A stretch of DNA of 64,000 bases, taken from contig NZ_FQZU01000009.1 in assembly GCF_900142135.1 (NCBI RefSeq), positions 1 to 64,000 of the forward strand. Reading direction: 5' to 3'. Each line of letters starts with the position of its first letter. Position 1 is the first letter of the stretch. This DNA is from Desulfatibacillum alkenivorans DSM 16219 (GTDB lineage: Bacteria; Desulfobacterota; Desulfobacteria; Desulfobacterales; Desulfatibacillaceae). The position numbers and the translations under genes are program-made. Below the pieces are notes generated by a model. It had not been told where the DNA came from. It made no database searches and worked only from the letters and a program-made list of their open reading frames with translations. Positions 655 to 43,585 of the stretch are shown here, piece after piece.

Positions 655-2046
655 TTACTTGTGGCTGTATACCGCGGCCAGGCGGACCAGACCTTCGGCC
701 CATTGGGGGGCGCCTAACGCGTGGATGTGGGTGTAGGTGGCCAGGACGTTTTTGTATATCATGCCGTCCCTGCCGTTATAGAGGCCTCTGCCGCGGACCA
801 TGGAAAAAGCCAGGTCCGACTCCTTGCCGTTGAACTCCAGGACCGAGGAGTAATGGAACTCGTGGCCCTTTAGCTGCGTGCCCGACTCGTAATAGGGATT
901 GGTTCCGTCCACCTTCACCACGGTGTATCCGTGGCCCTGGGGCTTTTTGGAAAGGCCGAACACAATGGGCAATATCCCGGCCATGGGATAGCGCTCTTCC
1001 TCCAGAACCAGTTCCTTTCCCAAAAACATAAGTCCGCCGCACTCCGCATAGATGGGTAGTCCTGCGTCGGCCAGGGCTTTGATTTTATTTCTGCCTGCGC
1101 TGTTGGCGGCCAGCTCCTTGGCATGGGTTTCGGGAAATCCGCCGCCTATGTACAAACCGTCCAATTTGGGTATCGGCTCGCCGGATACCAGGCTGAAGGA
1201 AACCACCTCCGCGCCGGCCTCCTCCAAGGCCTCCAGGTTTTCGGGATAATAAAACTGAAAGGCCGAATCCTGAACCACGCCGATCCGGGGCCTGTACCCG
1301 TCCAGCTGAGGCTTGGGTCTGGCCATGGGCAATTTGTCCGTGCGAGGCACGGCGACCAATGGGCTTCGGGCGATTTGGCGGACCATGTCCAGGTCAAGAT
1401 ACTTGGCGGCGATGTTTCCGGCTGAGTCCACGGACTCATAGGCCCAGTCATGCTCGGCCGTGGGAATGAGCCCCATGTGCCTTTCGGGAAAATCCTCGGA
1501 AGTCAGTTTGGGGATGGCTCCTATCACGGAAATTCCGGTGAATTTCTCGATGTTTTTTCTGAGCTTGGATTCGTGCCTGGCGCCGGCCACGTTGTTCAGG
1601 ACCACCGCGCGTAAATCCACGTCCGGGTCGAAATGGGAGCACCCCATGACCAAAGCGGCCATGGTGCGGGTGCTTTTGGTGCAGTCCACAATCAGGATTA
1701 AGGGAGAAACCAGGAGCTTGGCCAGCTCAGCCGTACTGGTGGATCCGTCCGGATCTATACTGTCGTACAGGCCCCGGTTTCCTTCGATGATGGAAATGCC
1801 GTCTTCTTTGGAGTGGCTGACAAAGGATGCAACGGTGGTGTGGGGATCTACCAGAAAGGCGTCCAGATTGTGGCACGGCTTGCGTGCGGCAAGGGCGAGC
1901 CAACCGGCGTCTATGTAATCCGGTCCCTTTTTAAATGGGATGACATTCTCGCCCGCTTTGGACAAGGCGGCTGAGAGGCCGACGGAAAGTATGGTTTTCC
2001 CAGATCCTCCGCGCAGGCCGGATATTGTGATTCTAGGGAGTACCAT
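655..2046 (-). CDS. dsrN: DsrN, siroheme amidase (cobyrinic acid a,c-diamide synthase family)
   Basis: A 463-aa glutamine-dependent amidotransferase of the CbiA/CobB family. The N-terminus carries a P-loop-like ATP site (GLRGGSGKT, residues 9-17) typical of the dethiobiotin-synthetase-like synthetase domain. The C-terminal half is a class I glutamine amidotransferase with the nucleophile motif AECGGLMFLG near residue 330 and a late THIHALG motif supplying the histidine. In sulfate reducers and sulfur oxidisers a CbiA homologue encoded with dsrAB is called DsrN. It is thought to amidate siroheme to the siroamide cofactor of sulfite reductase. Its place behind dsrA-dsrB-dsrD on the same strand supports that role over cobalamin synthesis, since no other cob/cbi gene is near. 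The start is ATG with a GGGG-type ribosome site at about 2050-2053. Confidence 0.88.
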   Translation of the reverse strand: MVLPRITISGLRGGSGKTILSVGLSAALSKAGENVIPFKKGPDYIDAGWLALAARKPCHNLDAFLVDPHTTVASFVSHSKEDGISIIEGNRGLYDSIDPDGSTSTAELAKLLVSPLILIVDCTKSTRTMAALVMGCSHFDPDVDLRAVVLNNVAGARHESKLRKNIEKFTGISVIGAIPKLTSEDFPERHMGLIPTAEHDWAYESVDSAGNIAAKYLDLDMVRQIARSPLVAVPRTDKLPMARPKPQLDGYRPRIGVVQDSAFQFYYPENLEALEEAGAEVVSFSLVSGEPIPKLDGLYIGGGFPETHAKELAANSAGRNKIKALADAGLPIYAECGGLMFLGKELVLEEERYPMAGILPIVFGLSKKPQGHGYTVVKVDGTNPYYESGTQLKGHEFHYSSVLEFNGKESDLAFSMVRGRGLYNGRDGMIYKNVLATYTHIHALGAPQWAEGLVRLAAVYSHK

Positions 2047-2078
2047 ATTCCCCGCTGAATTCTTTTTAGCGCTTGGGA

Positions 2079-2112
2079 CATGAAAACGGCCTAAGCCTAA
2101 GCCGTTTTCATG
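2079..2112 (-). other. Perfect 12-bp hairpin between dsrD and dsrN
   Basis: Positions 2079-2090 (catgaaaacggc) and 2101-2112 (gccgttttcatg) are exact reverse complements around a 10-nt loop. It sits in the 80-bp space between dsrD and dsrN and lacks a following U-run on the minus strand. It therefore looks more like an RNA-processing or stability element, or a partial attenuator, that could lower dsrN expression relative to dsrABD. Confidence 0.55.
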
Positions 2113-2126
2113 AATATCCCAGTTGA

Positions 2127-2366
2127 TTAATCTTCGTCTTCAGCGTGAGCTTGTTTGCCGACGCCTTTGAGCCCGATCAGGGTGGTGCTTCCGGAAGACC
2201 AGTACTCCAAGGTTCCTTCGGATACCATGGTGTTGACCAGCTTCTTCACCGTACGGGGTTTTTCTTCCGGGAAAAATGCGTAGAAATCTTTCAGATAAAA
2301 CTTGGATTTTCCTTTTTTACCCTTCAATTTCTCGACAATAATGTCTCTGGCTGCAGCTTCGTCCAT
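2127..2366 (-). CDS. dsrD: DsrD, small winged-helix partner of sulfite reductase
   Basis: A 79-aa protein matching DsrD in size, in its Lys-rich N-terminal half (KLKGKKGKSKFYLKDF) and in its place directly after dsrB. DsrD has a winged-helix fold and has been reported as an activator of DsrAB in sulfate-reducing organisms. It marks the reductive type of Dsr system. An AGAGG ribosome site precedes the ATG. A 9-bp hairpin separates it from dsrB, so its transcript level may differ from that of dsrAB. Confidence 0.93.
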   Translation of the reverse strand: MDEAAARDIIVEKLKGKKGKSKFYLKDFYAFFPEEKPRTVKKLVNTMVSEGTLEYWSSGSTTLIGLKGVGKQAHAEDED

Positions 2367-2394
2367 TTTATTACCTCTTTAGTTTTCTCCTGAA

Positions 2395-2416
2395 AGGGCG
2401 GCCCAAAGGCCGCCCT
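2395..2416 (-). other. 9-bp hairpin between dsrB and dsrD
   Basis: agggcggcc (2395-2403) and ggccgccct (2408-2416) form a perfect GC-rich stem with loop caaa. On the minus strand it follows the dsrB stop by about 20 nt and precedes the dsrD ribosome site. There is no U-run after it, so an intercistronic stabiliser or partial terminator is the most likely role. Confidence 0.5.
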
Positions 2417-2438
2417 CCAGGAAAAGTTGTTCAATATT

Positions 2439-3584
2439 TTAGAACTTGAACTGAGAGGTCTGGCGCCACGTGTAGTAGGCCGGATCCCTGAAGTCGTCGA
2501 TCAGGTGATGGGTGAACTCAAGGCCGGTTACGTCGAAGAAACGTTCCCAACCAATGCGCTCGGCCCATTCGCCGAAACGTTCGTACTTGTTGGCGCCAGC
2601 AGCATAGGCTTCCACCATGTTCTTGATGCAGTCGGTCGTGGACTCCCAACGCGGTACTTCGTTGGGCAGGAAGGCGACGACGACCTTGGAGAACTTGGGA
2701 TAGCTGATGCGGTTGGACACCTTGCCGCCGGCCATGATGACGATGCCGTCACCTTCGGTGTCAGCCAGGGGCATGGAGGGGCACATGGTGTAGCAGTTGC
2801 CGCAGAACATGCAGCGTTCCTGCTTAACGGCGACGGAATTCAGTTTCTTGTCGCCGATTTCCACCTTGGTGGGGCGGATGGCTGCCGTGGGGCATGCGGC
2901 CACTGCCAAGGGGATTTCACACATTTTGTCCAGGTATTCATGGTCCAACATGGGCGGCTTGCGATGGTAGCCCAGGATGGCGATGTCAGAGCAGTGCACA
3001 GCGCCGCACATGTTCAGGCAGCAGGCCAGGGACACGCGCAGGTGAGCAGGCAGACGCATGGATTTGAAATCGTCGAACAGAACGTCCATAGCCGCCTTCA
3101 CGGGACCGGATGCGTCGGTCGCGGGAGTGTGGCAGTGGATCCAGCCCTGAGTATGAACGATGTTGGTGATGCCGGCGCCGGTGCCGCCAACGGGGAACTT
3201 GTAGGATCCGCCGGCGAACTTGCGGCTTTCCAGATCGTCGATCAAGGGTTTAACCTTGGCTTCGGCGTCCACCATGAATTCGATGTTGTTACGGGTGGTC
3301 CAACGGACGTAGCCGTCGCAATGTTTATCAGCGATTTCACAGATTTCACGGATGTGGGTAACGCTCATGAGACGGGCGCCGCCGCAGCGAACCGTGTAAA
3401 CTTCGTCTCCGCTTTCAGCCACGTGCTTCAGCACGCCAGCCTGCAGGACTTCATGGTATGCCCATTTGCCCTTGTTGGCCTTGATGACCGGCGGGTAGAA
3501 TTGTTCGTAATGTTTGGGACCAATATCAGTGATCCGGTTCTCCATGGGTTTTTCGGGATTATATCCTGAGGATACAAATGCCAT
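2439..3584 (-). CDS. dsrB: Dissimilatory sulfite reductase beta subunit
   Basis: A 381-aa DsrB. With DsrA it forms the cytoplasmic alpha2beta2 sulfite reductase that carries out the last reductive step of sulfate respiration. Siroheme and [4Fe-4S] ligand cysteines are visible in [12 protein letters not shown] (mid-protein). A ferredoxin-like insertion carries [13 protein letters not shown] place the start at the ATG giving [13 protein letters not shown], because AGGGGG (3594-3599) lies 8-9 nt upstream and this matches the family's usual N-terminus. A GTG three codons earlier (3593) overlaps the ribosome site. The dsrA stop codon overlaps that ribosome site, so the two genes are probably translationally coupled. 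Confidence 0.97.
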
Positions 3585-3596
3585 TATGGTCACCCC

Positions 3597-4910
3597 CTAT
3601 CTCTGATGGTATTTTCTGAATTCATTAACGTCACGCTGCCAGCCGCCGGGAACTTCGTCTTCCTTCCAGAAGATGTAGGGGTTGGAACGAGGTTCTTTGA
3701 CGTGTTGCGGAACAGGATCGATACCGACGGCGTCCAGCATTGCCTGGAAGCCCTGGCGTTTGATCAGTTCGCCCAAACGCTCGCGGTTCTTGCCTTCTTC
3801 CATCCACCAATCCCAGATAGCTTCGATGACTTCGGTGATTTCCTCGTAAGGTTCTTCCACCTTGACGAAGGGAACCAGCAGGGAGCCCATCTGAGCGCCG
3901 TCCAGAATAGGAGCCTTGGCGCCGACCAGAATGGACAGGCCGGTTTCTTTGCCTTTTTTCAGAGCGCGAGGCATGACGTTGATGCAGTGCATGCAGCGGG
4001 TGCACTCTTTGTTGTTGATTTCCAGCTTGCCGTCTTCGTACTTCATGCAGTCGGTGGGGCACAGGTCGATGACTTCCTTTTGGATGTCGAAGGGTCCCCA
4101 GTTGCCGTCTTTATGAGCGCCGGCGTTGGGCGGGAACTCGCCGCCGACGTAAGCGGCGACAGCTTCCTGATCCACTTGGATGTCGTCGCGCCAGGTGCCG
4201 ATGAAGGACATGTCGGAACGAGCGATGGAAGCCACGCAGCAGTTGGGGCAGCCGTCAAACTTGAACTTGAACTTGTACGGGAAAGCCGGGCGGTGCAGTT
4301 CGTCCTGATACTCATTGGTCAGGAAGTGGCACAGAGCCTGGGTGTCGTAGCAAGCATATTCGCAACGGGCTTCGCCGATGCAGTCAGACGGGGTGCGCAG
4401 GTTGGAGCCGGAGCCGCCAAGGTCCTGCCCATGCTTGTGAGTCAGTTCAAAGAAAATTTCCTCGAGCTGCTCGGTGACGGTTCCCAAAAAGACGATGTCG
4501 CCCGTGGAACCGTGCATGTTGGTGATGCCGGAGCCGCGGAATTCCCACAGATCGCAAAGATTGCGGAGCCATTCGGTGTTGTAGAACTTACCGGCGGGCT
4601 GGTTCACGCGGATGGTGTGAAAGTGAGCAACGCCCGGGAACATTTCGGGCTGGTCGCAGTAACGGCCGATAACGCCGCCGCCGTAACCGAAAACGCCGAC
4701 GATTCCGCCGTGTTTCCAGTGAGTCCGGCCATGCTTGTAAGAAAGCTCCAGTACGCCGAGAATGTCTTCGCAGACATCCTGTTTTACCTGAAACTCTACG
4801 TTGTTTGCATTCTTGGCCCGGTTTTCAGCCTCCTGCTTGATGTCGGACACAAAGCTAGGCCAGGGCCCGCTTTCCAGTTGGTCCAACAATGGAGTCTCGT
4901 GTTTTGCCAT
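3597..4910 (-). CDS. dsrA: Dissimilatory sulfite reductase alpha subunit
   Basis: A 437-aa DsrA, full length. The siroheme-[4Fe-4S] ligands show as C177-x5-C183 (CIGEARC) and C221-x3-C225 (CPNCC). An inserted ferredoxin domain follows near residues 280-315 (CPTDC, then CTRCMHC). Basic sulfite-binding residues lie in the conserved N-terminal half. It pairs with DsrB, encoded immediately downstream. A perfect GGAGG (4916-4920) precedes the ATG by 5 nt. Upstream is a 180-bp AT-rich region with a possible promoter and a leader element. The upstream genes run in the same direction, so read-through from them is possible. Confidence 0.97.
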   Translation of the reverse strand: MAKHETPLLDQLESGPWPSFVSDIKQEAENRAKNANNVEFQVKQDVCEDILGVLELSYKHGRTHWKHGGIVGVFGYGGGVIGRYCDQPEMFPGVAHFHTIRVNQPAGKFYNTEWLRNLCDLWEFRGSGITNMHGSTGDIVFLGTVTEQLEEIFFELTHKHGQDLGGSGSNLRTPSDCIGEARCEYACYDTQALCHFLTNEYQDELHRPAFPYKFKFKFDGCPNCCVASIARSDMSFIGTWRDDIQVDQEAVAAYVGGEFPPNAGAHKDGNWGPFDIQKEVIDLCPTDCMKYEDGKLEINNKECTRCMHCINVMPRALKKGKETGLSILVGAKAPILDGAQMGSLLVPFVKVEEPYEEITEVIEAIWDWWMEEGKNRERLGELIKRQGFQAMLDAVGIDPVPQHVKEPRSNPYIFWKEDEVPGGWQRDVNEFRKYHQR

Positions 4911-9267: not shown

Positions 9268-9558
9268 GTGGCGAAACTCTTTAATTTCAAAGACAATAAA
9301 CCATGGGCCCAGGATATGACCATTGTCATGCAGTTGGGCCTGACCATGGCCGGCTGCATAGCCTTCTGCTTCTGGGCCGGTTATGAACTGGACAAATGGT
9401 TGGGGACCAGGGGGGTCTTCATCACAATCGGAACCTTGTTGGGAGTGGCTGGCGGAGCGAATGTCTGCTATCGCGCGATAATGGATTTAACCCGGGATTC
9501 CGGGAAAGGGGACGCGGGCGAAAAACCGCCCGAAGACAAACAGGATGGAACAGGTTAA
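9268..9558 (+). CDS. AtpZ/AtpI-like ATP synthase accessory membrane protein
   Basis: A 96-aa protein with two hydrophobic segments (about residues 17-40 and 49-68) and a charged hydrophilic tail. It matches the small AtpZ/AtpI-type proteins found at the front of F-type ATP synthase operons, which help assemble the c-ring or handle cations. The start codon is GTG with no strong ribosome site. The gene overlaps the next by 14 bp. First gene of an operon that codes only for membrane subunits. Confidence 0.75.
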   Translation: MAKLFNFKDNKPWAQDMTIVMQLGLTMAGCIAFCFWAGYELDKWLGTRGVFITIGTLLGVAGGANVCYRAIMDLTRDSGKGDAGEKPPEDKQDGTG

Positions 9559-9919
9559 TGAACTGCGGAGGCGTTATTGCCCCAGGGCGCTGGCTCTGGC
9601 GGTTATGGCAGGCGCCATCCTGATTGTGCTGGACATGAAGCCCATCGGTAAGGGGATCATTCTCGGGACTATATTCAGCATCCTCAATTTTCTCATTATG
9701 AGCCAGGCCTTGCCAATGGCTGTTGTGCAGGGCGGAAAAGGCAGCGTGCTTCGCAGCCTGGGGTCCGTTCTGGTCCGGTTTGTGTTAATGGCCGGGGCCC
9801 TGTTTGTAGGCGCGAAATATGATGCCTATAATTTTTTCGCCGTGGCGGGGGGGCTGTTCGCCGTTCAATTGGTTATTTTGGCGGATCATTTGCTCAAGGC
9901 GCTGCGGAGGCAAATCTGA
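9545..9919 (+). CDS. atpI: ATP synthase subunit I (AtpI-like)
   Basis: A 124-aa membrane protein with four predicted hydrophobic segments, the arrangement of the ATP synthase I chain family. AtpI is not a structural part of the enzyme but assists c-ring assembly, notably in sodium-type synthases. It overlaps the upstream small membrane protein gene by 14 bp. About 95 bp separate it from atpB. Confidence 0.75.
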   Translation: MEQVNELRRRYCPRALALAVMAGAILIVLDMKPIGKGIILGTIFSILNFLIMSQALPMAVVQGGKGSVLRSLGSVLVRFVLMAGALFVGAKYDAYNFFAVAGGLFAVQLVILADHLLKALRRQI

Positions 9920-10013: not shown

Positions 10014-10709
10014 ATGGATGAACTTGGGAGAATACATCAGTTGCTTGTGCCGCTGACGGATGGTTATACAATGACCTTCAATTTGGAAGTCATTCTCATG
10101 ACCTGGATCGTCATCGGCATTTTGCTTTTATTCGGGTTCCTGGCCGTGAAAAAGCGCGGCGTGATTCCCAACCCCATGCAGGTGGTGGGCGAGCTTTTCG
10201 TCAAAAATCTGTATGATCTTGCGGACGACGCCTTGGAAGAGGAGTTGGGCAAAAAGTACGGTCCCATGATTTGCGCGCTGTTCCTTTTTCTGTGGATGAG
10301 CAACATGCTGGGCGTTTTGCCGCCCTTGGGCTTCATTCCGGAATTTTCCGAGCCCACCAAAGATTTAAACACGCCGTTGGGGCTGGGCCTTATGGGCTTT
10401 TTCATAGCCCACGCCGCCGGCATCAAGGAAAAGGGCATCAAGGACTACCTCAAGGTGTACATTGAACCCTTCGCCTTCATGCTGCCCCTTAACCTGATCG
10501 GCGAGCTGGCCAAGGTGGTTTCCATCTCCTTCCGTCTGTTCGGCAACATCATGGGCGGCTCCATCATCATCCTGGTGGTTTCCCACCTCACGTACTCCAT
10601 ACTGCTTCCCCCGGCCCTGTTCGGCTTCTTTGGGATCTTTGTGGGCACCATCCAGGCCTTTGTATTCACCATGCTTACTACGGTTTATATTTCTGTCCAG
10701 GTGAAATAG
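10014..10709 (+). CDS. atpB: ATP synthase F0 subunit a
   Basis: A 231-aa subunit a with 5-6 hydrophobic segments. The essential stator arginine lies in the conserved motif SISFRLFGNIMGG (near residue 170), and the C-terminal helix has the usual IQAFVFTMLTTVYIS. It forms the ion half-channels facing the c-ring. The next gene begins 2 bp after the stop, with an AGGTGA ribosome site inside the atpB 3' end, so atpB and the fused c-subunit are probably made in a coupled way. Confidence 0.95.
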   Translation: MDELGRIHQLLVPLTDGYTMTFNLEVILMTWIVIGILLLFGFLAVKKRGVIPNPMQVVGELFVKNLYDLADDALEEELGKKYGPMICALFLFLWMSNMLGVLPPLGFIPEFSEPTKDLNTPLGLGLMGFFIAHAAGIKEKGIKDYLKVYIEPFAFMLPLNLIGELAKVVSISFRLFGNIMGGSIIILVVSHLTYSILLPPALFGFFGIFVGTIQAFVFTMLTTVYISVQVK

Positions 10710-10711
10710 TT

Positions 10712-11689
10712 ATGAATGATATTACGATGTGGGCCGAAGTGGCCGCGTTTGTTGGAGGCGGATTAGCGATGGGCTTTGGGGCCATTGGCGCTGCGGTGGG
10801 AGAGGGATACGCTGCAGCCAGCGCCAACGCCGCCATCTCACGGAATCCCGAAGTAAGCGGAGAGGTTTTCAAGACCATGCTGGTGGGCCAGGCGGTGGCC
10901 GAGTCTGCGGCGATTTTCGCCTTGGTCGTGGCCATGCTGCTGGTTTTTGCCAACGTAGGGGAAAATGCGTCCTGGATGACCGTGACCGTGTTCTTGTCCT
11001 CGGGCCTTTGCATGGGACTGGGCGCCATCGGCTCCGGCGTGGGCTCGGGATTTCCCGCAGGCGCCGCCTGTGAGGGAACCGCGCGTCAGCCGGCAATGGG
11101 CGGGCGGCTGGTGACCAATATGCTCATCGGCTCCGCCGTGTGCCAGACCCCGGCGATTTTCGCCCTGGTGGTCTCCTTTATCCTCATGTTCACCAATTTT
11201 TCCGACAGGCCGGTCAACCCCACATGGGCGGCCATCTTGGGCGCAGGCCTGGCTTCGGGGCTGGGCGCCATCGGCTCCGGCCTTGGCGGCGGCCTTGTGG
11301 CTCAGGCAAGCTGCGAAGGCGTGGCCCGTAAGCCGGAAGCCGCAGGCACCCTGACCAACGTCATGCTTTTGGGCCAGGCGGTCACCCAAACCACGGCCAT
11401 TTACGGCATGCTGGTCTCCTTTATCCTTATGTTCAAAGCCTTCGACCCTGCAGGCACGACCTTGGCGCCGGCCATGGCCCTGCTCTCCGCAGGCATCTGC
11501 ATGGGCATCGGCGCCATCGGGCCGGGCGTAGGGGAAGGCTTTGCAGCACAGAGCGCAGTAGGTTGGATTGCTAGGAACGAAAACGCCACGGCGGAACTGA
11601 CCCGCACCATGCTGGTGGGGCAGGCCGTTGCAGAGTCCACGGGCATTTACGCCCTGGTGGTGGCGTTGGTACTGATATTTGTTGTGTAA
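10712..11689 (+). CDS. Four-hairpin fused ATP synthase c-subunit with two ion sites
   Basis: A 325-aa protein made of four in-frame copies of the c-subunit helical hairpin, about 80 residues each. Each hairpin has the GxGxGxG helix-1 motif, a polar loop, and helix 2. The ion-binding acidic residue of helix 2 is Glu in hairpin 1 (E64, AVAESAAIF) and hairpin 4 (E308, AVAESTGIY). It is Gln in hairpin 2 (Q145, AVCQTPAIF) and hairpin 3 (Q226, AVTQTTAIY). Helix 1 has a second Glu only in hairpins 1 and 4 (E31, E275); the others have Ser112 and Gly193. So the protein should span four c positions but carry two ion sites. Duplicated c-subunits with lost sites are known from V-ATPases and from the mixed rotor of Acetobacterium woodii. 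It is followed at once by a normal single-hairpin c gene. Confidence 0.93.
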   Translation: MNDITMWAEVAAFVGGGLAMGFGAIGAAVGEGYAAASANAAISRNPEVSGEVFKTMLVGQAVAESAAIFALVVAMLLVFANVGENASWMTVTVFLSSGLCMGLGAIGSGVGSGFPAGAACEGTARQPAMGGRLVTNMLIGSAVCQTPAIFALVVSFILMFTNFSDRPVNPTWAAILGAGLASGLGAIGSGLGGGLVAQASCEGVARKPEAAGTLTNVMLLGQAVTQTTAIYGMLVSFILMFKAFDPAGTTLAPAMALLSAGICMGIGAIGPGVGEGFAAQSAVGWIARNENATAELTRTMLVGQAVAESTGIYALVVALVLIFVV

Positions 11690-11722
11690 AAATATTATTT
11701 CTTTTTCTCAGGAGGTAGGCAA

Positions 11723-11971
11723 ATGGCAATCGAAGGTGCAGACATCATCAAAGCAGCAGGTCTTTTGGGCGCAGGTTTATCCATGGGTTTGGGAGCTATC
11801 GGGCCCGGCGTCGGTGAAGGTATGGCGGCGGCCAAGGCTTGTGAAGCCATCGGACGCAACCCCAAGGAAGCCGGTCTGTTGACCCGTACCATGCTGGTCG
11901 GCCAGGCTGTTTCCGAGTCTACGGGCATCTATTCTCTGGTTATCGCGCTCCTTTTGCTCTTTGTGGTCTAA
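11723..11971 (+). CDS. atpE: ATP synthase F0 subunit c, sodium-type two-carboxylate motif
   Basis: An 82-aa two-helix c-subunit. Helix 2 carries V63, E65, S66, T67 and Y70 (AVSESTGIYSL), the ligand set known from sodium-dependent c-rings such as Ilyobacter tartaricus and in the same numbering. Position 32 in helix 1, glutamine in Ilyobacter, is glutamate here (GPGVGEGM). That gives a two-carboxylate site of the type described for Fusobacterium nucleatum. A strong AGGAGGT (11710-11716) precedes the ATG, consistent with high expression. Downstream of the fused c gene and upstream of the two b-type genes. Confidence 0.95.
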   Translation: MAIEGADIIKAAGLLGAGLSMGLGAIGPGVGEGMAAAKACEAIGRNPKEAGLLTRTMLVGQAVSESTGIYSLVIALLLLFVV

Positions 11972-11986
11972 TACGGGGAAGAATTC

Positions 11987-12439
11987 ATGGAAGTTGTCAG
12001 CAATATCGCCTTAATCAGCATCAACGAGACGTTGGTCGTCCAGGTGATCTCTTTCCTGATCTTCCTTTTTATCGCCAAAAAGTTCATTTTTACTCCCCTG
12101 CAGGATTCCATGGGCGAAAGGGACTCCCAAATCAAGGGCGCCCAGGACGATATCGCACAGGTTAAGCAGGAAATGGACGCCATGGCCGCAGAACTTGCCA
12201 AGCACGAGGCGGATGCCAAAAGCAAAGCCTTGTCCTTGAAAAATGAATTGGAAGATGAAGGCAAAAAAGAGGCCCTGGACATCGTGAACGCCGCTCGGAA
12301 AGATATTGAAGGCATGCGCGCAGAAGCCGCCGCTCAGGTGGACGATCAAATTGCGCAGGCGCGCCGGTTCTTTCAGGCTGAGTCCGAGGCGCTAAGCATA
12401 AGCATTATGGAAAGCATGCTGGGCAGAAAGGTTTCTTGA
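11987..12439 (+). CDS. ATP synthase F0 subunit b' (AtpF-like)
   Basis: A 150-aa peripheral-stalk subunit. One N-terminal membrane helix (about residues 13-32, VVQVISFLIFLFIAKKF) is followed by a long charged coiled coil rich in Glu, Lys and Ala. There is no signal peptide. It begins 16 bp after atpE, with GGGGAAG as ribosome site. It pairs with the second b-type protein encoded next, as in bacteria that use b/b' heterodimers. Confidence 0.85.
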   Translation: MEVVSNIALISINETLVVQVISFLIFLFIAKKFIFTPLQDSMGERDSQIKGAQDDIAQVKQEMDAMAAELAKHEADAKSKALSLKNELEDEGKKEALDIVNAARKDIEGMRAEAAAQVDDQIAQARRFFQAESEALSISIMESMLGRKVS

Positions 12440-12499: not shown

Positions 12500-12554
12500 G
12501 AGTCCGGCGGGCGCTCCCCAATCCCCCATCGGGAGGGTGAGAGCCCGTGGACTC
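12500..12554 (+). other. Long imperfect hairpin in the leader of the second b-subunit gene
   Basis: In the 107-bp gap between the b-type genes, gagtcc (12500-12505) pairs with ggactc (12549-12554). Further inside, cgggc pairs with gcccg and ctccc with gggag. The structure ends about 25 nt before the atpF ATG and about 15 nt before its GGAGAGG ribosome site. It may act as an intercistronic stabiliser or tune translation and subunit ratio. Confidence 0.5.
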
Positions 12555-12579
12555 AGGCCCACGAATATTGGAGAGGCTG

Positions 12580-13146
12580 ATGAAACATTCGGCGCAAAAG
12601 ATCGGGTTGTTCGCAGGCGTGCTGTTCATGTGTTTCGCCGCGAACGCCTTTGCAGCGGAAACTCAGAGTTGGAGACCGACCTACGACTTTGTCATGCGGT
12701 GGGTCAACTTCGCTATCATGGCGTTTTTGTTCTTTAAATTCGCCTGGGGACCCCTTACCCGCTGGCTGCGGGGGCAGGGCGATGAAGTGGCCGCCCAACT
12801 CAAGGATATGGAAGAAAAAAAGCAAGCGATCCTGGAAAAAATGGCCGAAACCAAGGAACAGATCCAACAGCGCTCTCAGTACCTGGAAGAACTTATGGCC
12901 AGAACCACGGAAAACGCCAGGAAGGACAAAGAGCAGATTGTGGAGCAGGCCAAGGCCGAAGGCGCGCAAATGATCCAGGACGCGAAACAACGGGCCGATT
13001 ACCAGATCGCAGCAGCCAGGAAGCAATTCCGGGCGGAGCTTATTGACGAAGCCGTGGAACTGGCGTCCCAAAAACTGCCGGGGATCATTTCCTCTGACGA
13101 CGAAAATAAGATCCAGACGGATTATCTGGAAAAAGCCCTGCAGTAA
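12580..13146 (+). CDS. atpF: ATP synthase F0 subunit b, with N-terminal signal-like segment
   Basis: A 188-aa b subunit. The first ~26 residues look like a cleavable signal peptide (KIGLFAGVLFMCFAANAFA). A second hydrophobic stretch (FVMRWVNFAIMAFLFFKFAW) then forms the membrane helix, followed by a long coiled coil. A b subunit with a signal-like extension is common in Desulfobacterota. I chose the ATG at 12580, 4 nt after GGAGAGG, over the GTG at 12547. It ends the operon: no delta, alpha, gamma, beta or epsilon gene follows. Confidence 0.9.
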   Translation: MKHSAQKIGLFAGVLFMCFAANAFAAETQSWRPTYDFVMRWVNFAIMAFLFFKFAWGPLTRWLRGQGDEVAAQLKDMEEKKQAILEKMAETKEQIQQRSQYLEELMARTTENARKDKEQIVEQAKAEGAQMIQDAKQRADYQIAAARKQFRAELIDEAVELASQKLPGIISSDDENKIQTDYLEKALQ

Positions 13147-13245: not shown

Positions 13246-14247
13246 CTACACCACGTCCGTATCCCCCAAGCTCAAACGCCACCTTAACGGATCCAGCCAT
13301 AATTTTGCGCCCCCCCCTTTAAAACGGCCTGCAAGATGGAACACCTTGGGCGCCGCCGCTTTAGGCACAGGGTAAAATCCCAACCGGGAGGCCAATCCAT
13401 TCTTTCCAATGGGAAACAGGGCCGTGAGCATAAAACATCCCCACGAAGCCGCGCGGATCTTGGCGGCTTTTACAGCCTGCTCCGCGGCCTCCGGGCAATC
13501 CAGGGGAAAGCAGTCCACGAGCACGCACACTTTAAGGCCGGAAATCCACTGAACCCGGAGCGTGTAATAGCCCGCCAAACGCCCTGACTTAAACAGCCCG
13601 AAAACCTTGTAGCCAAAGTCAGGCAAATCCAGGTAGCGCCATTGCAAATAGGCTCTATCCCTGACCTGAATGATTCCTTCCAGGGGCCTGTGCGCCTCCC
13701 AAAGATGGTCAAACTGGAGACTGAGCCTTTCCATGGGTGCTTCCTCCCAACCCCGGTCCAGTCTCGGGGATGAGCCGGCCTTAAGCAGCGCGGAAAAAGA
13801 GGTGAATCCAACCCGGGCCAGCAGATCCCCGACGCGGCGCCACCCTAAACTCCCGGTAAATCCGGGCATGGAGTTTTTGTTGGGAAACCCCCAAACCATG
13901 GTTATTCCGTGCTCCGACTCCATATGCGCATAAACCTGCCGCGCAAGGCCCGTAAAGACGCCCTGGCCCTGATACCGGGGATGCACCATGGTGTCGCAGG
14001 AATAGCCGCAAAGGGTCTCTACGCCGTCCACAAGCATTCTAACGGGTATGGCGGCGTACTGGCCTACGATCCTGCCCTGATCCTTAGCAAGTGCGATAAA
14101 GCCCGGTCCGGCCGGGTTATTAAGGAATTGCCATTTCCAGGCGTTGAGCCTGGCGCGCACAGGGTCCACCTGGCCGAAAACCGCCCTTCGAAGAGTCAGG
14201 ATGCCGTGCTCGTCGCCGGCTTTATAAAATTTTGCCTGCCAGGTCAT
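13246..14247 (-). CDS. GNAT-family N-acetyltransferase
   Basis: A 333-aa protein with a GNAT acyl-CoA site in the N-terminal half (VHPRYQGQGVFTGLARQVY, near residues 85-105, carrying the Q/RxxGxG/A-type pyrophosphate loop). The C-terminal half looks like a second, diverged acyltransferase-like fold. The substrate is unknown. An AGAGG ribosome site precedes the ATG. It runs convergent to the F0 operon and heads the same way as the radical SAM gene upstream, so it may be the last gene of that cluster. Confidence 0.8.
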   Translation of the reverse strand: MTWQAKFYKAGDEHGILTLRRAVFGQVDPVRARLNAWKWQFLNNPAGPGFIALAKDQGRIVGQYAAIPVRMLVDGVETLCGYSCDTMVHPRYQGQGVFTGLARQVYAHMESEHGITMVWGFPNKNSMPGFTGSLGWRRVGDLLARVGFTSFSALLKAGSSPRLDRGWEEAPMERLSLQFDHLWEAHRPLEGIIQVRDRAYLQWRYLDLPDFGYKVFGLFKSGRLAGYYTLRVQWISGLKVCVLVDCFPLDCPEAAEQAVKAAKIRAASWGCFMLTALFPIGKNGLASRLGFYPVPKAAAPKVFHLAGRFKGGGAKLWLDPLRWRLSLGDTDVV

Positions 14248-26787: not shown

Positions 26788-29700
26788 ATGCCGCGCCCTG
26801 GACTTCGACCCTATTCCATGATGAAAATCGCCGTTGTTATCAGCTTTGTCCTATGCCTGTTTTCCGCCTCCGTCCATGCAGAGGGCTGGAGCATTGAGCC
26901 CGCCGGTTCTATTGGCGGCTGGAGAGGAGCCATTGCGAAATCCGGCGACTACGCTTATTTCGCCGAAGGCCAGGCTCTGCGGACGGCGGATCTGACCGGC
27001 GACGCTCCCGAGATTGTGGCCAGCCTCTCCTTATCCGGAGAACCGGCTGCGGTTTTGGCTTCCGGAAATTACGTGTACGTGGCCGGCGTCAACCAGTTCG
27101 TCGTGGTGGATGTTTCCGATCCTTTGTCTCCCGAGGAAGCGGGCTCTTGCGAGGTCCTGAGCGAAGGCCTGGGCAGGGGAGGCGTCTCCATGGACGGGGA
27201 CAGGATATACCTGGCCTTTGACGTTTCGGGCGCGGACTTCACCCTGCAGGTTGTGGATATCAGCACGCCGGACGCCCCCTCCGTCATCACTTCCACCACC
27301 CTGATTCCCGCGGACAGAATTCTGGTTTCCAACAACCTGCTTTACGCAGCCTGCGAGGATACGAACTTCCGGATTTATAACGTGTCCGACCTGGACAATA
27401 TTAGCGAGTTGGGCGCGTACTCGCCCGTATGCCCGGGCTACACCATGGCGAAAAAAGGGAGTTTCATTTACATCAGCTGCGGCTATGAATCCCAGGGAGG
27501 GGTGCAGATAATCGACGTTTCCGACACCGGCGCCCCGTACAAGGAAAATGAATACGCCTATACGGACATGAGAGCCTACGGCGTGGATTTTAACGGGAAT
27601 GTCACCTTTATTGCGGGCAATGACGCCGGCATGGTCGCGGCGGACCTGACCGACCCTGCGGCCCCGGTTTTTCGGGGGCAGTTCGACGAAGGATACGGGA
27701 TAAGCAACCTGATTGTGGACTACCCCTACGCATACCTGATTTCAACCAAGGACCAGGCCCTCACCAAAGTGGCGATTGACGACCTGAGCGATATTACCGC
27801 CAACGGCTCCGGTTTTTCCCCCAGTTACGCCAACGTGCTGATTCTCGACGGAACCACGCTTTTTATGGGAGCGAGCCAAGCCTTATGGGCCTACGACATG
27901 ACGGACCCTGACCTTCCGGTTTTAATCGGGCGTTGGACCGACTACGCAAACATTCAGAAGATGGCCGTGGAAAACGGCAGGCTGTATGGGCTGATCAGCA
28001 ATGACCTTTACGTCCTGGACGTTTCGGACCCTGCTTCGGGCGTGTCATTGCTGGGAACCTACGATCCGGGAACCTACCCCGCCAAAATGGCTGTCTACAA
28101 CGGCGTCGTCTATCTGGTGGAAACCGACGGAGACATGCTGGTAATCAATGCGTCCGCCGCACCAACTTTCTCCGTGGTGCAGGACGCGACCCTGTATGGG
28201 TCGGTTCAGGATTTGTACGTAGACGAGGGCCTTCTCTTATTGGCGGGCGCACCCGGTTCGTCCGGCCAGACCGCCGTTTACGAAATTGACGAAAGCGGCG
28301 CCTTGATCCCGGACGCGGTCATACCAGCCGATTACGGCAACGTTCGGTGCGCTGTGAAAAATGGATGCGTCGCCGTGGCCAGCCACACCGGATACGCCGC
28401 CTCGGGCACGGCGAACGGCTCTTTGGGGCTCTACCGCATCGTCCTGGGCAGCGGAACTGAAATGGACAAAATAGCCATCCCGGGCATGCAGTTTGACGAC
28501 TTGTATGTATCGCCTTTGGAAGGCGAAGATCTTTTGGTTCTCGCCTCGGGGTATTGGGATAACAACGCCCGTAAAAGCACTGGCGACACCACAAACGGAA
28601 CCCACACATTCACCTATGCAAGCGAGACGCAAACCATCACCAAAGAGGACGTCTGCAAATCTCCTTATCCCACCGGCATGACCGTCGTTCCAACGCCTTC
28701 AGGGGGCAGCATGCTCACGACTTGCGACATGTCCTACGGCAATTACACCCAGACAGTTAAGGTGGGCGACGGCCTTTGCTGCCTGACAACCAAAATTCTG
28801 CCCGCTGAGGCGAAACAGGACGGATGCACCGTCACGCCTGCGGAATGGGGCAGGGGGGAGTGCGGAACCGTGGTGACGCTGACTGCTGACGAGGTTTCGC
28901 CATGGAACTTCAAGGAATGGACCGGCGCGGCTTCCGGCTCGAATAGGCAAGAGGACGTTACCGTAAGCGGAGATTGCTCGGAGGCGATCGCCAATTTTGT
29001 CTCGCCCGTCCTGACCCTGGCCGCCGGAGGAGGCAACCCCGGTTACAACGAAGTCTACGGCCAAAACCCGGATAATGAAAAAGAAAAGGTCGCGGCCGTC
29101 ATCAATCTTTCCGTGAATGACGTGGACGACTGGCGCGTTAATTCGGTTTCCTTCACCGCCTCCGGGACAGGCAATGAAAAAGACGACATCGCTGCTGTTA
29201 ATCTGTATCTGGGCGGTGTGGGGGGAAACCTGCTTTCCTCCGGGGCTTACAATGCAGATAACGGCGTGGTTGCTTTAGCCGTCAATCAAGTCATCAACAA
29301 AGGCGAGAGCATCACCCTGACCCTGACCTATCTGTTCAACGAGGACAAATCCTGCCCCTGTAACGATTATTCAACGAGCATCAATGTGTCCCAGGTGAAC
29401 GCCCTGCCCCTGGTTTACCCCAATTACAAAAAAGTCCCGCCCCTTCCCCAAGGGGTTTCCAGCGGCCCCCTTACCATCAAGCCCGGCATTATGGACGTAA
29501 TCGACGGCGACAATCAATATGGCGAGAAAAAAGAGGCTCTGCCCGAGCCTTTTAAACTCCAGGTCACGCGCCAACATCCTGACTGCATTGAAAAAGTTCA
29601 TTGGGAGCTTATGCCGGAAGCCATCGCCAATGGCGCCAAACTCTCCGGCGGGACTTCCATCGACACCCAGGTGGATGCTTCCGGGAATACCGAAACCACC

Positions 29701-32700
29701 CTGACTGTGGGCGAAAAAGTCGGCATGAAAAATCCCTATGTCACCAACGCCTATCTCTACAGCAAAGGCGCCGCTTGCTATTCATCCAGCGCAGGCAAGG
29801 TCTTCACCGCTTACGGCGCCGGCGTGGACGTGGCGCTCACTCCCGAGCATGACGGAACGGAGGGCTCCAGCGTCGTCTCCACCTTTGTTTCGGACATTCC
29901 CGCAACCAATAAGATGACCGTAAAAATCGACATGGCGCCCACCGACTTTGCGGAGGTTCAGCAAGTTAAATACGACATTGGCGGCGCCCTAAAAACCGGA
30001 ACCATGGTCACCCAAAATAAGGAGTATTATGCAACCTACGACATGAAGGACTTCAGCAAGACCGAGCCCTTTGTGGTCACGATAGTCATGGAAAAGGACG
30101 GAAAAACCGTCGAACAGGAGGAAAACTATGAGCTAAAGGCCTTGAAGCTCCCAAGCTGGTTCGGCTTTCTGGAAAGCATCAGCGAGCAAATCAACAAGGA
30201 CTGGAACGCCGGCGACGAATATTACTTCGTTACGTTTGAATACCCCACCAATTTCATCTGGAACGACTATGTCCCCTCCAGCATGGGCTTTTTGGGCGGA
30301 CTGGACTTTGATTTGGGCGTGGAGTTCGTGGGAGAGGCCGACTATTTCATCACGGAAAAGTCCCGGTTCAGCGCCAAATGCAATTCCGAACCCAAGTTCC
30401 TGGGCCAAAAGATCTCTTTAAAGGGCGAACTGGTGGGCAATTTTGACGAGAAGTTCCTGTTCCAGCGCGGGACCGGCAAGATCGAAGCAACCACCACATT
30501 CGACCTGCCGTCCAAAGGCTTTTCCAAAACCTTTGTGGTTTACGCTGTGCCCATCACGGTGTCCGTGGACATCTCCGGCAACGTGGAAATTTACGTCAAC
30601 GGCAACGCGGTCCTGAACAAGAAACTGCAGATTGAGCGGGCCGTGGTCACGCCGGGAACCACCATCACCGGAGATTTGACCTTGTCCCTGGCTGCGGTCC
30701 TGGGCCTTGCCAAGATTTCCGCCACAGGCTCTCCGTCCGTCAACATGGAAATCACTATAAATTATAAAAACTCCGCAGGCGTGGACACAACCTGGGGCGC
30801 GGAAGTCAAAGTGCCCATCAAAATTTGCGGCTCCCTGTTCTGGGGCCTGGCCAGTTCCGAGCTCTATTCCACGGAGCTTGGCCCCTGGTCCTTTAACAAA
30901 GGCCGCAAAGGCCTTTTGGATTACCCCCATCTTACCGTGGACGATATCAGCGTGCCCAGGCTCATGACCACCTCCGGCCTTTCCGCCAATTCCTCCGGCC
31001 GGCGGATCGCCGTCTGGATCGACGACGCTGAACCCGGCGAGGCCGAACCCAACCCGGACGTCTTCTTCCGGTATTTTGACGGAGCAAACTGGACTTCCGC
31101 AGCCCCCCTCATCGGCCTGGACAGCCCCAACAGCGAATGGGAAACCGATCCCCGGGTGGTCTTCATGGACGGGAATTACGCTCTGGCCGCCTGGACCACC
31201 AACGACGGCGATCCCAGCCTGGATAACCTGAACGACATCCTGGCCGCCCAGGATATTGACTACGCCGTATGGAACGGCTCTAACTGGTCCGTCCCCGCAC
31301 GCGTCGTTGACGACGACAACGCGGACGGCTCCGTATCCCTGGCCTACGATCCTATAAACGCCAATGTCCTGGCCGCGTGGGTGCACGACATGGACAATTC
31401 CAACAGCGTCACTTCGCGCACGGACTGGATCATTCAATACTCGGCGTACGACATCGCCGGCGGCGTCTGGCCGGCCCCAGCCGCCATAACGGGAACCGCC
31501 TCCGGCACAGCCGACTTCTGCCCGGCCCTGGCGGCCAATGCAGACGGCCAGGGGCTCCTGGTCTGGTGCCGGGACGACGATGGCCTTTCTTACACGGAAC
31601 TGGATGAAATCACAGACGGCTCAAACGTGGATTACACCAACACGGACGCCAATGTGTATTGGTCCTATTGGGACGGGGCGGGCTTCACGGCAGGCGCGGC
31701 TCTGACGGCCCCGGACTCGGCCACGGAAACCGCCTGCGACGTGTCCTGCGGGCCGGTGGATCTGGTTTATTCCAAGGAGGGAGGGCCGGAAACCTATACC
31801 CTGGCCATTGCTGTCTGGACCTCCAGTACGGCGGACGCCAAGACCCTCCACTACTCCGTGTTTGACTTTGACGCCATGCAATGGGGCGAACCGGGAATCA
31901 TAACCCAAAACACCTCCTACATCGAGGATCCCAAGGTCGTGGTGGATTCCCTGGGCGCAGCCTCAGTCATCTGGCGGGCCGCCGACGGCGTGGAAGGCGA
32001 CCTTTACATGAGCAAGGCCGGCGACCTGACCAATCCCGTTTGGAGCGAGCCGAAAAAAGTCACGGACGACCAATACGTGCAAACCAGCCCCTCCCTGGCC
32101 GTGGGCGCCAACGACGAGGTCGTCGCCTCATTCAACTCCTACGACATGGGCGCAGGCGCTTCCGTATCCGGCGCGGGATTCAGCGGCTCCATGAACGTGG
32201 CTCCGGCAAACCCCGAAACAGCCTCCCTGGCCGGAAACTGGAGCGACGCGGGCCAGGATCTGGATGTGGACGGCCTGTACGAGGCTTTGATTGTGTCCCT
32301 GGATGCGGCCGTCGTTCAGGCGGGCGACTATGAAGTGCGAGCGGATTTGTATTCCGATTACGGCAAGATCACGGATGCCTCCGCCCAATTCACCGCGGCC
32401 TCCGCCCTGACCGAAACCGTGCAACTGGCCTTTGACGGCGCCTACATAGGCGACCAGCAAGTGGACGGCCCCTATTACATACGGAATTTCAGAATTCTGG
32501 ATAACAGTGCATCCTCCGTGCTGGCGGCTTCGGACTCGGCGCCTTACACCACCACGGAATACGCATACACGGACTTCATTTCCGGCCCCTTGTCCCTGGA
32601 TAAGGAGGAATACCTGGGAACCGAAGACGCCATGACCGTCACCCTCATCCGGGCCGCCTTGAACGCCGATTCGGGCGTCGCGGAAACGGCTCAGGTCAAG

Positions 32701-43400: not shown

Positions 43401-43585
43401 AGGAAACCCTGGCCGCTGTGGACGCATTCGGCCCGTATCATCCCTGGACCCGGGAGTTTTTAAAGCAAAGGCTCATCGCCTATCGCGCTGCCAAGGATCC
43501 GCGTACGCCTCGGGCCCTGGCGGACATGCAGGCCTATCTGTCCAACGACTTGCTTGAATTTTCCGACGCCCTGGTTTACGACTGA
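40442..43585 (+). CDS. Second membrane spermidine-synthase-like protein
   Basis: A 1047-aa paralogue of the preceding gene, with N-terminal membrane helices (about residues 20-460) and a spermidine-synthase-like domain (about 520-720). That domain has a better glycine loop (LVLGLGAGGTPGWLA), a following acidic residue (IFVAEQNPYSLEMA) and YDLIVQKGQAAPLAS, LYTAEFFQLAARRLAPGG. A C-terminal helical-repeat region is shared with its neighbour. Fused membrane/aminopropyltransferase-like proteins are known in bacteria; the product is unknown. It starts at the ATG in the ATGA overlap with the upstream gene, so the pair is likely made together. Confidence 0.75.
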   Translation: MTIDLHKTAGASPDSGVQTASWWRLPAACVMSGLMTACGAFVCMVLYFQFSVYISGFTASAILAPPMLLFFLGWGAWLGGRLVQKSSTPMLFMARLALAQCAFAALAFLWTMPIKALYPVIGKAGWAFPGGAALAGAVTVALAAAPSAMMTGAVLPASAALLERGKPQSSLLSGIWLAGAAVGLALGFGLNLALTGPGLWIPAVFLVMTAIGVNNLARMSPLSEPAPQEVRLLDRRGLLLLAAGLGVALMGWTLIRMMQPLSALPFPAGLTALCCLLLGAAGGCILFRLRSSQGATGVAASLGLVGFWLALVWAAGDKLVILSDALGLIKSQGMTNYYAVQAAVTSLAAFVPGIAAGYLACGLQSQRKSAALPVQVGNAAACLAMGAGLGLLIASGLSYSGVSMVSVLRGVGLTAMLLAAGFSVIIFVRNREPASPALILALCMASLVMLRQPGPSTVWTQHDPLKEIASLQDQDFNSVLNGMRTVRRQVKWEAYSPKGATAIKAGDGSEFVENGAARLNLRFDAASEVMAGLVPASLHPNPKSALVLGLGAGGTPGWLARESGIQEIFVAEQNPYSLEMARLCAAANLQVLENSKVRVQTAEFVPLLRFEEKQYDLIVQKGQAAPLASNPGLYTAEFFQLAARRLAPGGVFNLSVSIRGMDPIALQSIYGALGDAFPHVHTFRPQPDALFLVCSKEALSFNEDGLRVRLAGEPYAPAMTAVWGTSGLEGLFSRYLAGPGFSRMLSGMAIWHGITSRDDQPQAYAIIAGAQGRTNPRSVIGMQDAEERQHYRKPFFAQGNVDLLRIKMQQVEMFVLEGSPDLSPDLFSSNLEPIVRACLSFQQKNYLNFLGQWKALGIEPESPLEIAMNAYALAAQGHEKSLDLCKALDEKWPDASQIIRAEYFWKTGQNGRSLEHLEQAFSGIKTHPWTWPAALQWGLDLAMEMAREDENAASGVLAMTASPFCLMQGEELRLQTRLAAAQMAGLKETLAAVDAFGPYHPWTREFLKQRLIAYRAAKDPRTPRALADMQAYLSNDLLEFSDALVYD

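What the first reader, a model, noticed from the sequence alone, without database searches (positions are those of the whole stretch)
10712..11689. Four-hairpin fused c-subunit with ion-binding Glu in only two hairpins
The translation shows four c-subunit hairpins joined in one protein. The helix-2 carboxylate is Glu in hairpins 1 and 4 (E64, E308) but Gln in hairpins 2 and 3 (Q145, Q226). The helix-1 Glu is also lost in hairpins 2 and 3. A ring containing this protein would take fewer ions per turn than its helix count suggests, changing the ion/ATP ratio. Fused or site-deficient c-subunits are known in V-ATPases and in the Acetobacterium woodii mixed ring; a four-hairpin form with loss in exactly the two inner hairpins is unusual for an F-type synthase.
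Basis: partly seen in the sequence, partly recalled or inferred. Interest (0 to 1): 0.85.

Follow-up and report, generated by a model that had tools for sequence, protein, structure and literature searches.

The report
Fused rotor subunit with missing teeth
A sulfate-reducing bacterium carries a fused four-unit piece of the rotating wheel of its ATP-making machine in which two of the four ion pockets are disabled; relatives carry two- to six-unit versions, most with one to five disabled pockets, which looks like an evolved way to change how many ions one ATP costs.

Summary
Window 10712-11689 encodes a 325-aa fusion of four c-subunit hairpins (helix 2: E64, Q145, Q226, E308; helix 1: E31, S112, G193, E275). 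It lies in an Fo operon (AtpI, AtpI, a, fused c, single c, b, b') without F1 genes. It is no oddity of one genome: I read 100 fused-c genes of 2-6 hairpins from 98 genomes of the phylum. Patterns run from EE and EQ through EQQE and EQQQ to EQQQQQ. Dead positions are lost as whole sites: helix-1 Glu/Gln goes with helix-2 Glu (398 of 401 hairpins), and Thr67/Tyr70 of hairpin i go with Glu65 of hairpin i+1. Both chain ends keep their half-site. Dead hairpins are under purifying selection. The single c has the full Na+ ligand set and a stronger ribosome site. Most fused-c genomes hold two Fo sets but one canonical F1. Best reading: a low-copy member of a mixed Na+ rotor that lowers ions per turn, on an F1 shared with a second Fo. 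It extends the Acetobacterium-type hybrid rotor. Ring composition, coupling ion and F1 sharing are inferred, not shown; one engineered Glu-to-Gln change stops ATP synthesis in a Bacillus PS3 ring, which speaks against easy tolerance.

The parts
9268..9558 (+). AtpI-like gene (PF09527), first gene of the Fo operon
   Evidence: E 2.3e-14
9545..9919 (+). second AtpI-like gene (PF03899, ATP synthase I chain)
   Evidence: E 3.9e-07
10014..10709 (+). atpB, stator subunit a (has the SFRLFGN stretch; Arg assignment from general knowledge)
   Evidence: PF00119 E 9.6e-50; alignment with the second a of the genome
10712..11689 (+). fused four-hairpin subunit c, site pattern E-Q-Q-E
10730..10957 (+). hairpin 1 (aa 7-82): E31/E64 present, partner residues A66/F69 degenerate
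10973..11200 (+). hairpin 2 (aa 88-163): S112/Q145, partner residues P147/F150; no site
11219..11443 (+). hairpin 3 (aa 170-244): G193/Q226, but partner residues T228/Y231 kept for the site of hairpin 4
11462..11686 (+). hairpin 4 (aa 251-325): E275/E308 and partner residues T310/Y313 present
11710..11715 (+). AGGAGG ribosome site of the single c gene (duplex -11.6 kcal/mol; fused gene -3.8)
11723..11971 (+). single-hairpin subunit c with the E32/V63/E65/S66/T67/Y70-type Na+ ligand set
11987..12439 (+). subunit b (stator stalk)
   Evidence: PF00430 E 3.8e-16
12547..13146 (+). second subunit b (b'); no delta or F1 gene follows
   Evidence: PF00430 E 4.3e-15; next gene on the other strand is a GNAT acetyltransferase (13246-14247)

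Best explanation
The gene makes a low-copy (probably about one per ring) member of a mixed Na+-type rotor whose bulk is the single c encoded next to it. In the ring its four hairpins stand side by side in chain order. Na+ sites form between a hairpin that gives Glu32/Glu65 and the hairpin before it, which gives Ser66/Thr67/Tyr70. Both chain ends keep their half-sites and so join normal neighbours; two internal junctions are dead. Each fused subunit therefore removes two ion steps from a turn (one to five in most relatives), lowering the ions per three ATP. A ring of 11 hairpins, a size assumed and not measured, would carry 9 sites, 3.0 ions per ATP instead of 3.67. This Fo (a, fused c, c, b, b') has no F1 of its own and most likely uses the one canonical F1 of the cell, which also serves a second Fo with a different c. 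Shown: the sequence, the family, the coupled loss of site residues, purifying selection, operon context, gene counts. Inferred: presence in the ring, copy number, Na+ coupling, lowered ratio, sharing of F1.
For: Coupled loss: helix-1 Glu/Gln and helix-2 Glu agree in 398 of 401 hairpins (148 both, 250 neither, 3 discordant). Thr67 of hairpin i against Glu65 of hairpin i+1: 43/0/9/249; Tyr70: 46/1/6/248; the same-hairpin comparison shows nothing (p 0.83, 0.59) and the reverse neighbour has the opposite sign. This is the geometry of the solved Na+ site, Glu32/Glu65 of one subunit with Val63/Ser66 of the next (passages of PMC3692424 and PMC2359735). Chain ends: the last hairpin is Ser-Thr-Tyr in 97 of 97, the first hairpin has Glu65 in 99 of 99. 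The printed alignment of A. woodii c1 (4bem_J) follows the same rule: E then S/F in hairpin 1, Q then T/Y in hairpin 2. dN/dS is 0.20 or less in each of 52 hairpins of 12 pairs, dead ones included. Single c: 98 of 99 single segments carry E or Q, E, S, T, Y; the exception is the c of the second Fo, with Leu for Thr67. Ribosome site stronger for the single c in 93 of 95 loci, medians -10.6 and -4.2; subunit a, one copy per enzyme, has median -5.5. Fo/F1: 57 of 64 fused-c genomes have one canonical gamma and 54 of 64 two a subunits after taking off extra N-type-like sets, against 47 and 3 of 52 genomes without fused c. In 7 genomes the F1 genes follow the fused-c Fo directly, and these too hold a second a. 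AlphaFold2 model: pLDDT 84.9, pTM 0.83, eight helices; hairpins 1-2 match A. woodii c1 in its ring, Z 22.1, 1.8 A over 163 residues. Rnf/Nqr pump genes (PF03116): 64 of 64 fused-c genomes, 42 of 52 others.
Against: In a Bacillus PS3 enzyme with a single-chain c10 ring, one E56Q change abolished ATP synthesis (passage of PMC8809890, citing Mitome 2004); two to five Gln in a row should be worse unless subunit a or the Na+ type of site differs. No proteomic, structural or ring-mass evidence. The Fisher values ignore relatedness: on a tree of four-hairpin proteins the hairpin-4 Glu/Gln state changes only twice, both times together with Thr67, Tyr70 and helix 1 on the same branch. Nine of 52 live internal sites lack Thr67 in the partner and six lack Tyr70. 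Ribosome-site strength is weak evidence of stoichiometry, and two loci (L121, L123) show the opposite. Only one of five AlphaFold2 models is near this confidence by much (84.9, 76.7, 59.0, 39.4, 38.7) and the alignment had three sequences. One genome (G057) has the same operon without a fused c, so the subunit is not indispensable to this kind of Fo.
Confidence: 0.62

Rival explanations
1. The ring consists wholly or mainly of fused subunits (for example three EQQE chains, 12 hairpins, 6 sites, 2.0 ions per ATP), giving a V-ATPase-like ion pump, with the single c unused or minor.
For: Three four-hairpin chains would match F1 threefold symmetry (arithmetic); V-ATPases also have one site per two hairpins (known). 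Ends of the fused chain fit each other as well as they fit the single c.
Against: A single c with a complete site was read in 95 of 98 fused-c genomes and has the stronger ribosome site in 93 of 95 loci. EQQQ or EQQQQQ rings would give 0.67-1.33 ions per ATP, needing an implausible ion-motive force for synthesis. G057 keeps the operon with single c alone.
Confidence: 0.08
2. The dead arc is there for structure, not for gear ratio: it fixes ring size, seeds assembly or makes an asymmetric contact for the shared gamma/epsilon foot; the lowered ratio is a side effect.
For: Low copy number suggested by the ribosome site; hairpin number varies from two to six while the chain ends stay fixed; two AtpI-like genes, AtpI being a c-ring assembly helper according to a passage of PMC4154653, precede it.
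Against: A structural arc would not need both Glu32 and Glu65 and the partner Thr/Tyr to go together, junction by junction.
Confidence: 0.13
3. The protein is not a rotor subunit at all (assembly scaffold, regulator, or not made).
For: No protein data; weak ribosome site; one genome lacks it.
Against: dN/dS 0.20 or less; half-sites kept at the chain ends in 97 of 97 and 99 of 99, which only makes sense against ring neighbours; fold match to A. woodii c1 taken from a ring structure.
Confidence: 0.07
4. The Fo does not use the canonical F1: it works with an F1 not recognised here, with an N-type F1, or as an F1-less Na+ leak.
For: In the own genome no F1 gene lies beside either Fo: F1 with b', b and delta is on another contig.
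Against: One gamma only in the own genome and in 57 of 64 fused-c genomes after N-type-like ones are taken off; in 7 genomes F1 genes follow the fused-c Fo.
Confidence: 0.1

Closest known systems
Acetobacterium woodii / Clostridium aceticum hybrid F/V rotor (subunit c1 with c2/c3)
   Same: Fused c gene between atpB and single-c gene(s) in an F-type operon; Glu-to-Gln loss in the fused subunit; first hairpin Glu, last hairpin keeps Thr/Tyr; Na+ motif; said to lower Na+ per ATP (passages of PMC7911925, PMC7793690; printed alignment).
   Different: c1 has two hairpins and one dead site; here four (two to six in relatives) and up to five dead sites in a row. The two c1 hairpins group with each other and with the F. 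nucleatum c in a short-sequence tree, not with the matching hairpins here. Helix-1 Gln is kept in the dead hairpin of c1 but lost here. Here two Fo sets go with one F1.
V/A-type K subunits, M. jannaschii three hairpins, M. kandleri thirteen hairpins
   Same: Several hairpins in one chain; in many, ligands lost after duplication (passage of PMC2359735).
   Different: They belong to V/A-type enzymes; M. kandleri keeps all 13 sites. Here the enzyme is F-type (PF00119, PF00430) and the V-type K models stay under their cut-offs.
Fusobacterium nucleatum two-carboxylate Na+ c-ring
   Same: Glu32, Val63, Glu65, Ser66, Thr67, Tyr70 set in the single c and in live junctions (passages of PMC3692424).
   Different: That ring is eleven identical single hairpins.
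Second Fo of Desulfococcus oleovorans (Koumandou and Kossida 2014)
   Same: A fully duplicated Fo complement without a second F1 in a related sulfate reducer (passages of PMC4154653).
   Different: The passages treat it as species-specific or gained from Thermotogae; the term search found no 'hairpin' or 'fused' in that text.

Membership tests
F-type ATP synthase subunit c (PF00137) | Two-helix hairpins of the family | tested here: met
   Four stretches, 206.2 bits, cut-off 24
F-type ATP synthase subunit c (PF00137) | Helix-2 carboxylate in every hairpin | tested here: not met
   Q145 and Q226
F-type ATP synthase subunit c (PF00137) | Encoded in an F-type Fo operon | tested here: met
   AtpI, a, c, b, b' (order)
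Two-carboxylate Na+ rotor (F. nucleatum type) | Glu32, Val63, Glu65, Ser66, Thr67, Tyr70 | tested here: met
   Met by the single c and by the H3/H4 junction of the fused protein; not by its other two junctions
Two-carboxylate Na+ rotor (F. nucleatum type) | Na+-dependent ATP hydrolysis and Na+ transport | not testable with these tools
   Needs purified enzyme
A. woodii-type hybrid rotor | Fused site-deficient c beside a single c in one F-type operon | tested here: met
   single c read in 95 of 98 fused-c genomes
A. woodii-type hybrid rotor | Fused subunit of two hairpins (V-type c size) | tested here: not met
   Four hairpins here; 3 of 97 untruncated relatives have two
A. woodii-type hybrid rotor | Common origin of the fusion with A. 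woodii c1 | tested here: inconclusive
   c1 hairpins group together (0.90) and with F. nucleatum c (0.98), next to the first hairpins; sequences are short
A. woodii-type hybrid rotor | Fused and single c in one ring | not testable with these tools
   Needs ring mass or structure
V-type K subunit | Reaches curated V-type K models | tested here: not met
   NF004913 95.1 bits, cut-off 211; NF011483 82.8, cut-off 188
N-ATPase | Own operon with F1 genes | tested here: not met
   No F1 gene by the window operon. TIGR03322 scores 183.5 (cut-off 130.85) for the fused protein by summing four repeats, but only 68 for the single c

The most novel reading that the evidence does not exclude
A natural gearbox: one F1 motor is shared by two interchangeable Fo rotors, one with an ordinary c ring and one Na+ rotor whose ion-to-ATP ratio has been tuned lineage by lineage by fusing hairpins and deleting whole inter-hairpin ion sites (none to five), so that a rotor runs across long arcs without any ion step.
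Probability: 0.42. Interest if true: 0.93.

Novelty: new variant of a known kind. Interest (0 to 1): 0.78.

Why it matters
The number of ion sites in the c ring sets the ion cost of ATP and was thought to be changed mainly by ring size (general knowledge). Here a phylum has a graded natural series with none to five dead sites in one chain. That makes open questions testable: how large a gap in the ring the a/c interface tolerates, whether ring symmetry matters, and whether one F1 can serve two Fo motors. It clashes with the laboratory result that one Glu-to-Gln change stops ATP synthesis in Bacillus PS3 (passage of PMC8809890), so it should also show what adaptation allows it. It bears on energy budgets of marine sulfate reducers, where a Na+-pumping Rnf2 is reported to be abundant (passage of PMC11887813).

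Tried and rejected
Pseudogene or drifting repeats: rejected by dN/dS 0.20 or less in 52 hairpins of 12 pairs (a 13th pair was skipped because hairpin numbers differed) and by Gln at the second hairpin of 96 of 97 untruncated proteins (the exception is the two-hairpin EE protein; patterns).

Assembly artefact: rejected by single-contig genomes.

Same-hairpin coupling of Thr67/Tyr70 with Glu65: tested, absent (p 0.83 and 0.59).

Absence elsewhere is therefore not claimed.

Literature: ten searches. (17 papers listed), (none), (6 papers) showed no title or abstract start about F-type c subunits of more than two hairpins; only passages of ten papers were read. Brandt and Mueller 2015 and Matthies 2014 are not held. 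From recall only: the 2015 abstract says twelve anaerobic species encode an Fo-type and a Vo-type c in one operon; some of the present species may be among them.

Corrections to my own counts: one search counted two genomes twice and merged two repeats, so the numbers quoted come; one search used the older rows (duplicates cannot add changes). One search counts were copied by hand from the genome tables, and N-type sets were taken off by the number of gamma hits of 170-212 bits, not by mapping each a subunit; 6 of 64 fused-c genomes showed no gamma, one showed two; 5 showed one a, 4 three, 1 four. Of the 52 genomes without fused c, 5 showed no gamma, 42 one a, 3 two, 7 none. Of 27 phylum genomes with fused c, 26 have one full-length canonical gamma and G338 only a fragment and an N-type-like one; 16 have two a and 11 three, ten of these with a second N-type-like gamma.

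Rows dropped: repeat fetches of one gene (L001, L003-L006, L011, L012, L002, L014-L016 and later duplicates) before counts; three proteins cut by contig ends (L083, L085, L120) from pattern counts. Some 'single c' rows are not operon single c: L013 is the c of the second Fo, and a piece at the start of L084 is probably the last hairpin of a fused gene. No single c was read for G042, G078, G351. Gene order differs in L065 (fused before a) and L075 (fused after b').

Full report
Observation. The ORF 10712-11689 (+) reads without a stop for 325 aa and holds four ATP-synt_C stretches. Helix-2 residues are E64, Q145, Q226, E308; helix-1 residues E31, S112, G193, E275. Upstream lie two AtpI-like genes and atpB, downstream a single-hairpin c (11723-11971) and two b genes; then genes on the other strand. 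No F1 gene is near. The dissimilatory sulfite reductase genes are 4-7 kb away, so the host is a sulfate reducer; a 93% identical homologue lies in a Desulfatibacillum MAG.

Own genome. It has six PF00137 places: four in this gene, the single c, and a c on contig 35; two a subunits; one PF00231 gamma. F1 lies on contig 32 as b', b, delta, alpha, gamma, beta, epsilon; contig 35 holds AtpI-like genes, a and c. So there are two Fo and one F1.

Family. Of 116 order-level genomes 64 hold a fused c; of 395 phylum genomes 42 match at E 1e-30 or better, and each of the 34 of these outside the order, read as loci, has two or more hairpins. Together I read 100 genes from 98 genomes: 70 with four hairpins, 11 with three, 10 with five, 5 with six, 4 with two, three of them cut by contig ends. 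Patterns of the 97 whole ones: EQQQ 36, EQQE 27, EQEE 6, EQQQE 6, EQQQQQ 5, EQQ 5, EQQQQ 4, EQE 4, EQ 2, EQEQ 1, EE 1. Hairpins group by position across families in a tree of 157 segments: first hairpins 31 of 32 in one pure clade (support 0.93), last 29 of 32 (0.86), middle 24 of 28 (0.68); second hairpins are poorly resolved (0.37). The fusion is thus old within the phylum, with middle hairpins multiplied.

How sites are lost. In solved Na+ rings the ion sits between neighbours: Glu32 and Glu65 of one subunit, Val63 and Ser66 of the next, with Thr67 holding a water and Tyr70 bonding Glu65 (passages of PMC3692424, and PMC2359735). If a dead hairpin had merely drifted, only its own Glu would be gone. 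Instead helix-1 Glu/Gln and helix-2 Glu agree in 398 of 401 hairpins, and Thr67 and Tyr70 follow the Glu65 of the next hairpin, not their own (Thr67 43/0/9/249, Tyr70 46/1/6/248; same hairpin p 0.83 and 0.59). The rule appears at four different junctions: H1/H2 in the EE protein, H2/H3 in EQE, H3/H4 in EQQE, H4/H5 in EQQQE (patterns). Relatedness inflates the p values: among four-hairpin proteins I count two changes of hairpin 4, both with joint change of Thr67, Tyr70 and helix 1. Nine live sites lack Thr67 in the partner, six lack Tyr70. A. woodii c1 shows the same signature in the printed alignment. The chain ends never lose their halves: Ser-Thr-Tyr in the last hairpin of 97 of 97, Glu65 in the first of 99 of 99. 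I read this as a chain that must join ring neighbours with working sites while its inner junctions are free to die.

Selection and dose. dN/dS is 0.20 or less in all 52 hairpins of 12 close pairs. The ribosome site of the single c is stronger than that of the fused gene in 93 of 95 loci (medians -10.6 and -4.2 kcal/mol); a, a one-copy subunit, has -5.5, b -5.2, b' -9.5. This points to few fused chains per ring. One genome, G057, has the same gene order without the fused c.

F1 sharing. Among 64 fused-c genomes 57 have one canonical gamma, 54 two a subunits after N-type-like sets are taken off; among 52 genomes without fused c, 47 have one gamma, 42 one a and 3 two (hand count). In the 27 phylum genomes checked all have at least two a and none more than one full canonical gamma. 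In seven genomes F1 genes follow the fused-c Fo, so F1 has been linked to this Fo in some lineages and stands apart from both Fo sets in the window genome. I infer one F1 for two Fo.

Ion. The single c has the full Na+ set; of 99 single segments only the c of the second Fo of the window genome differs, with Leu at 67. Rnf/Nqr genes are present in 64 of 64 fused-c genomes and 42 of 52 others (not corrected for relatedness). Na+ is likely for this Fo; the ion of the other is open.

Structure. AlphaFold2 with three sequences gave eight helices, pLDDT 84.9, pTM 0.83 for the best of five models, the others 76.7 to 38.7. Residues 1-165 match A. woodii c1 with Z 22.1, 1.8 A over 163 residues; V-type c subunits follow at Z 17-19.

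Mechanism and size of effect. With one EQQE chain in an 11-hairpin ring, 9 sites and 3.0 ions per ATP; EQQQ 2.67; EQQQQQ 2.0; these need about 173, 194 and 259 mV at 50 kJ/mol (arithmetic; ring size assumed). A low ratio suits building or living on a steep Na+ gradient; [quoted passage not shown] The strongest counter-evidence is that one E56Q in a single-chain PS3 ring abolished ATP synthesis (passage of PMC8809890).

Known and new. Hybrid rotors with a two-hairpin c1 are known. A second Fo in D. oleovorans was noted in 2014 (PMC4154653). Desulfatiglans MAG authors in 2026 saw two to four atpE copies and could not settle the ion (passage of PMC13343851). I found no account of three- to six-hairpin F-type c subunits, of the junction rule or of the two-Fo/one-F1 pattern as a group trait in the ten searches made (list in Tried and rejected), in a library without most subscription journals.

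Noticed in passing
window 655-4910 (-): Two NIR_SIR proteins (dsrA/dsrB-like) and a CobB/CbiA-type amidotransferase, 4-7 kb from the Fo operon.
   Followed up: no
window 26788-33108 (+): 2106-aa ORF with only LVIVD repeats recognised.
   Followed up: no
window 37626-43585 (+): Two large ORFs (939 and 1053 aa) without a Pfam match at 1e-6, between a FAD_binding_2 flavoprotein and a PfkB kinase.
   Followed up: no
L080 and L052 (genome G010): One genome with two fused-c operons, one five-hairpin (EQQQQ) and one four-hairpin (EQQQ).
   Followed up: partly
L125 (genome G246): Two-hairpin fused c with both sites intact (EE, TT, YY), a possible picture of the state before site loss.
   Followed up: partly
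L087 (genome G057): Same Fo operon with single c but no fused c: a natural absence.
   Followed up: partly
G001:C125, G018:C1:23087, G032:C419 and others: Extra gamma hits of 170-212 bits in 21 genomes of the order sample, probably N-ATPase sets, beside the two Fo and one F1.
   Followed up: no
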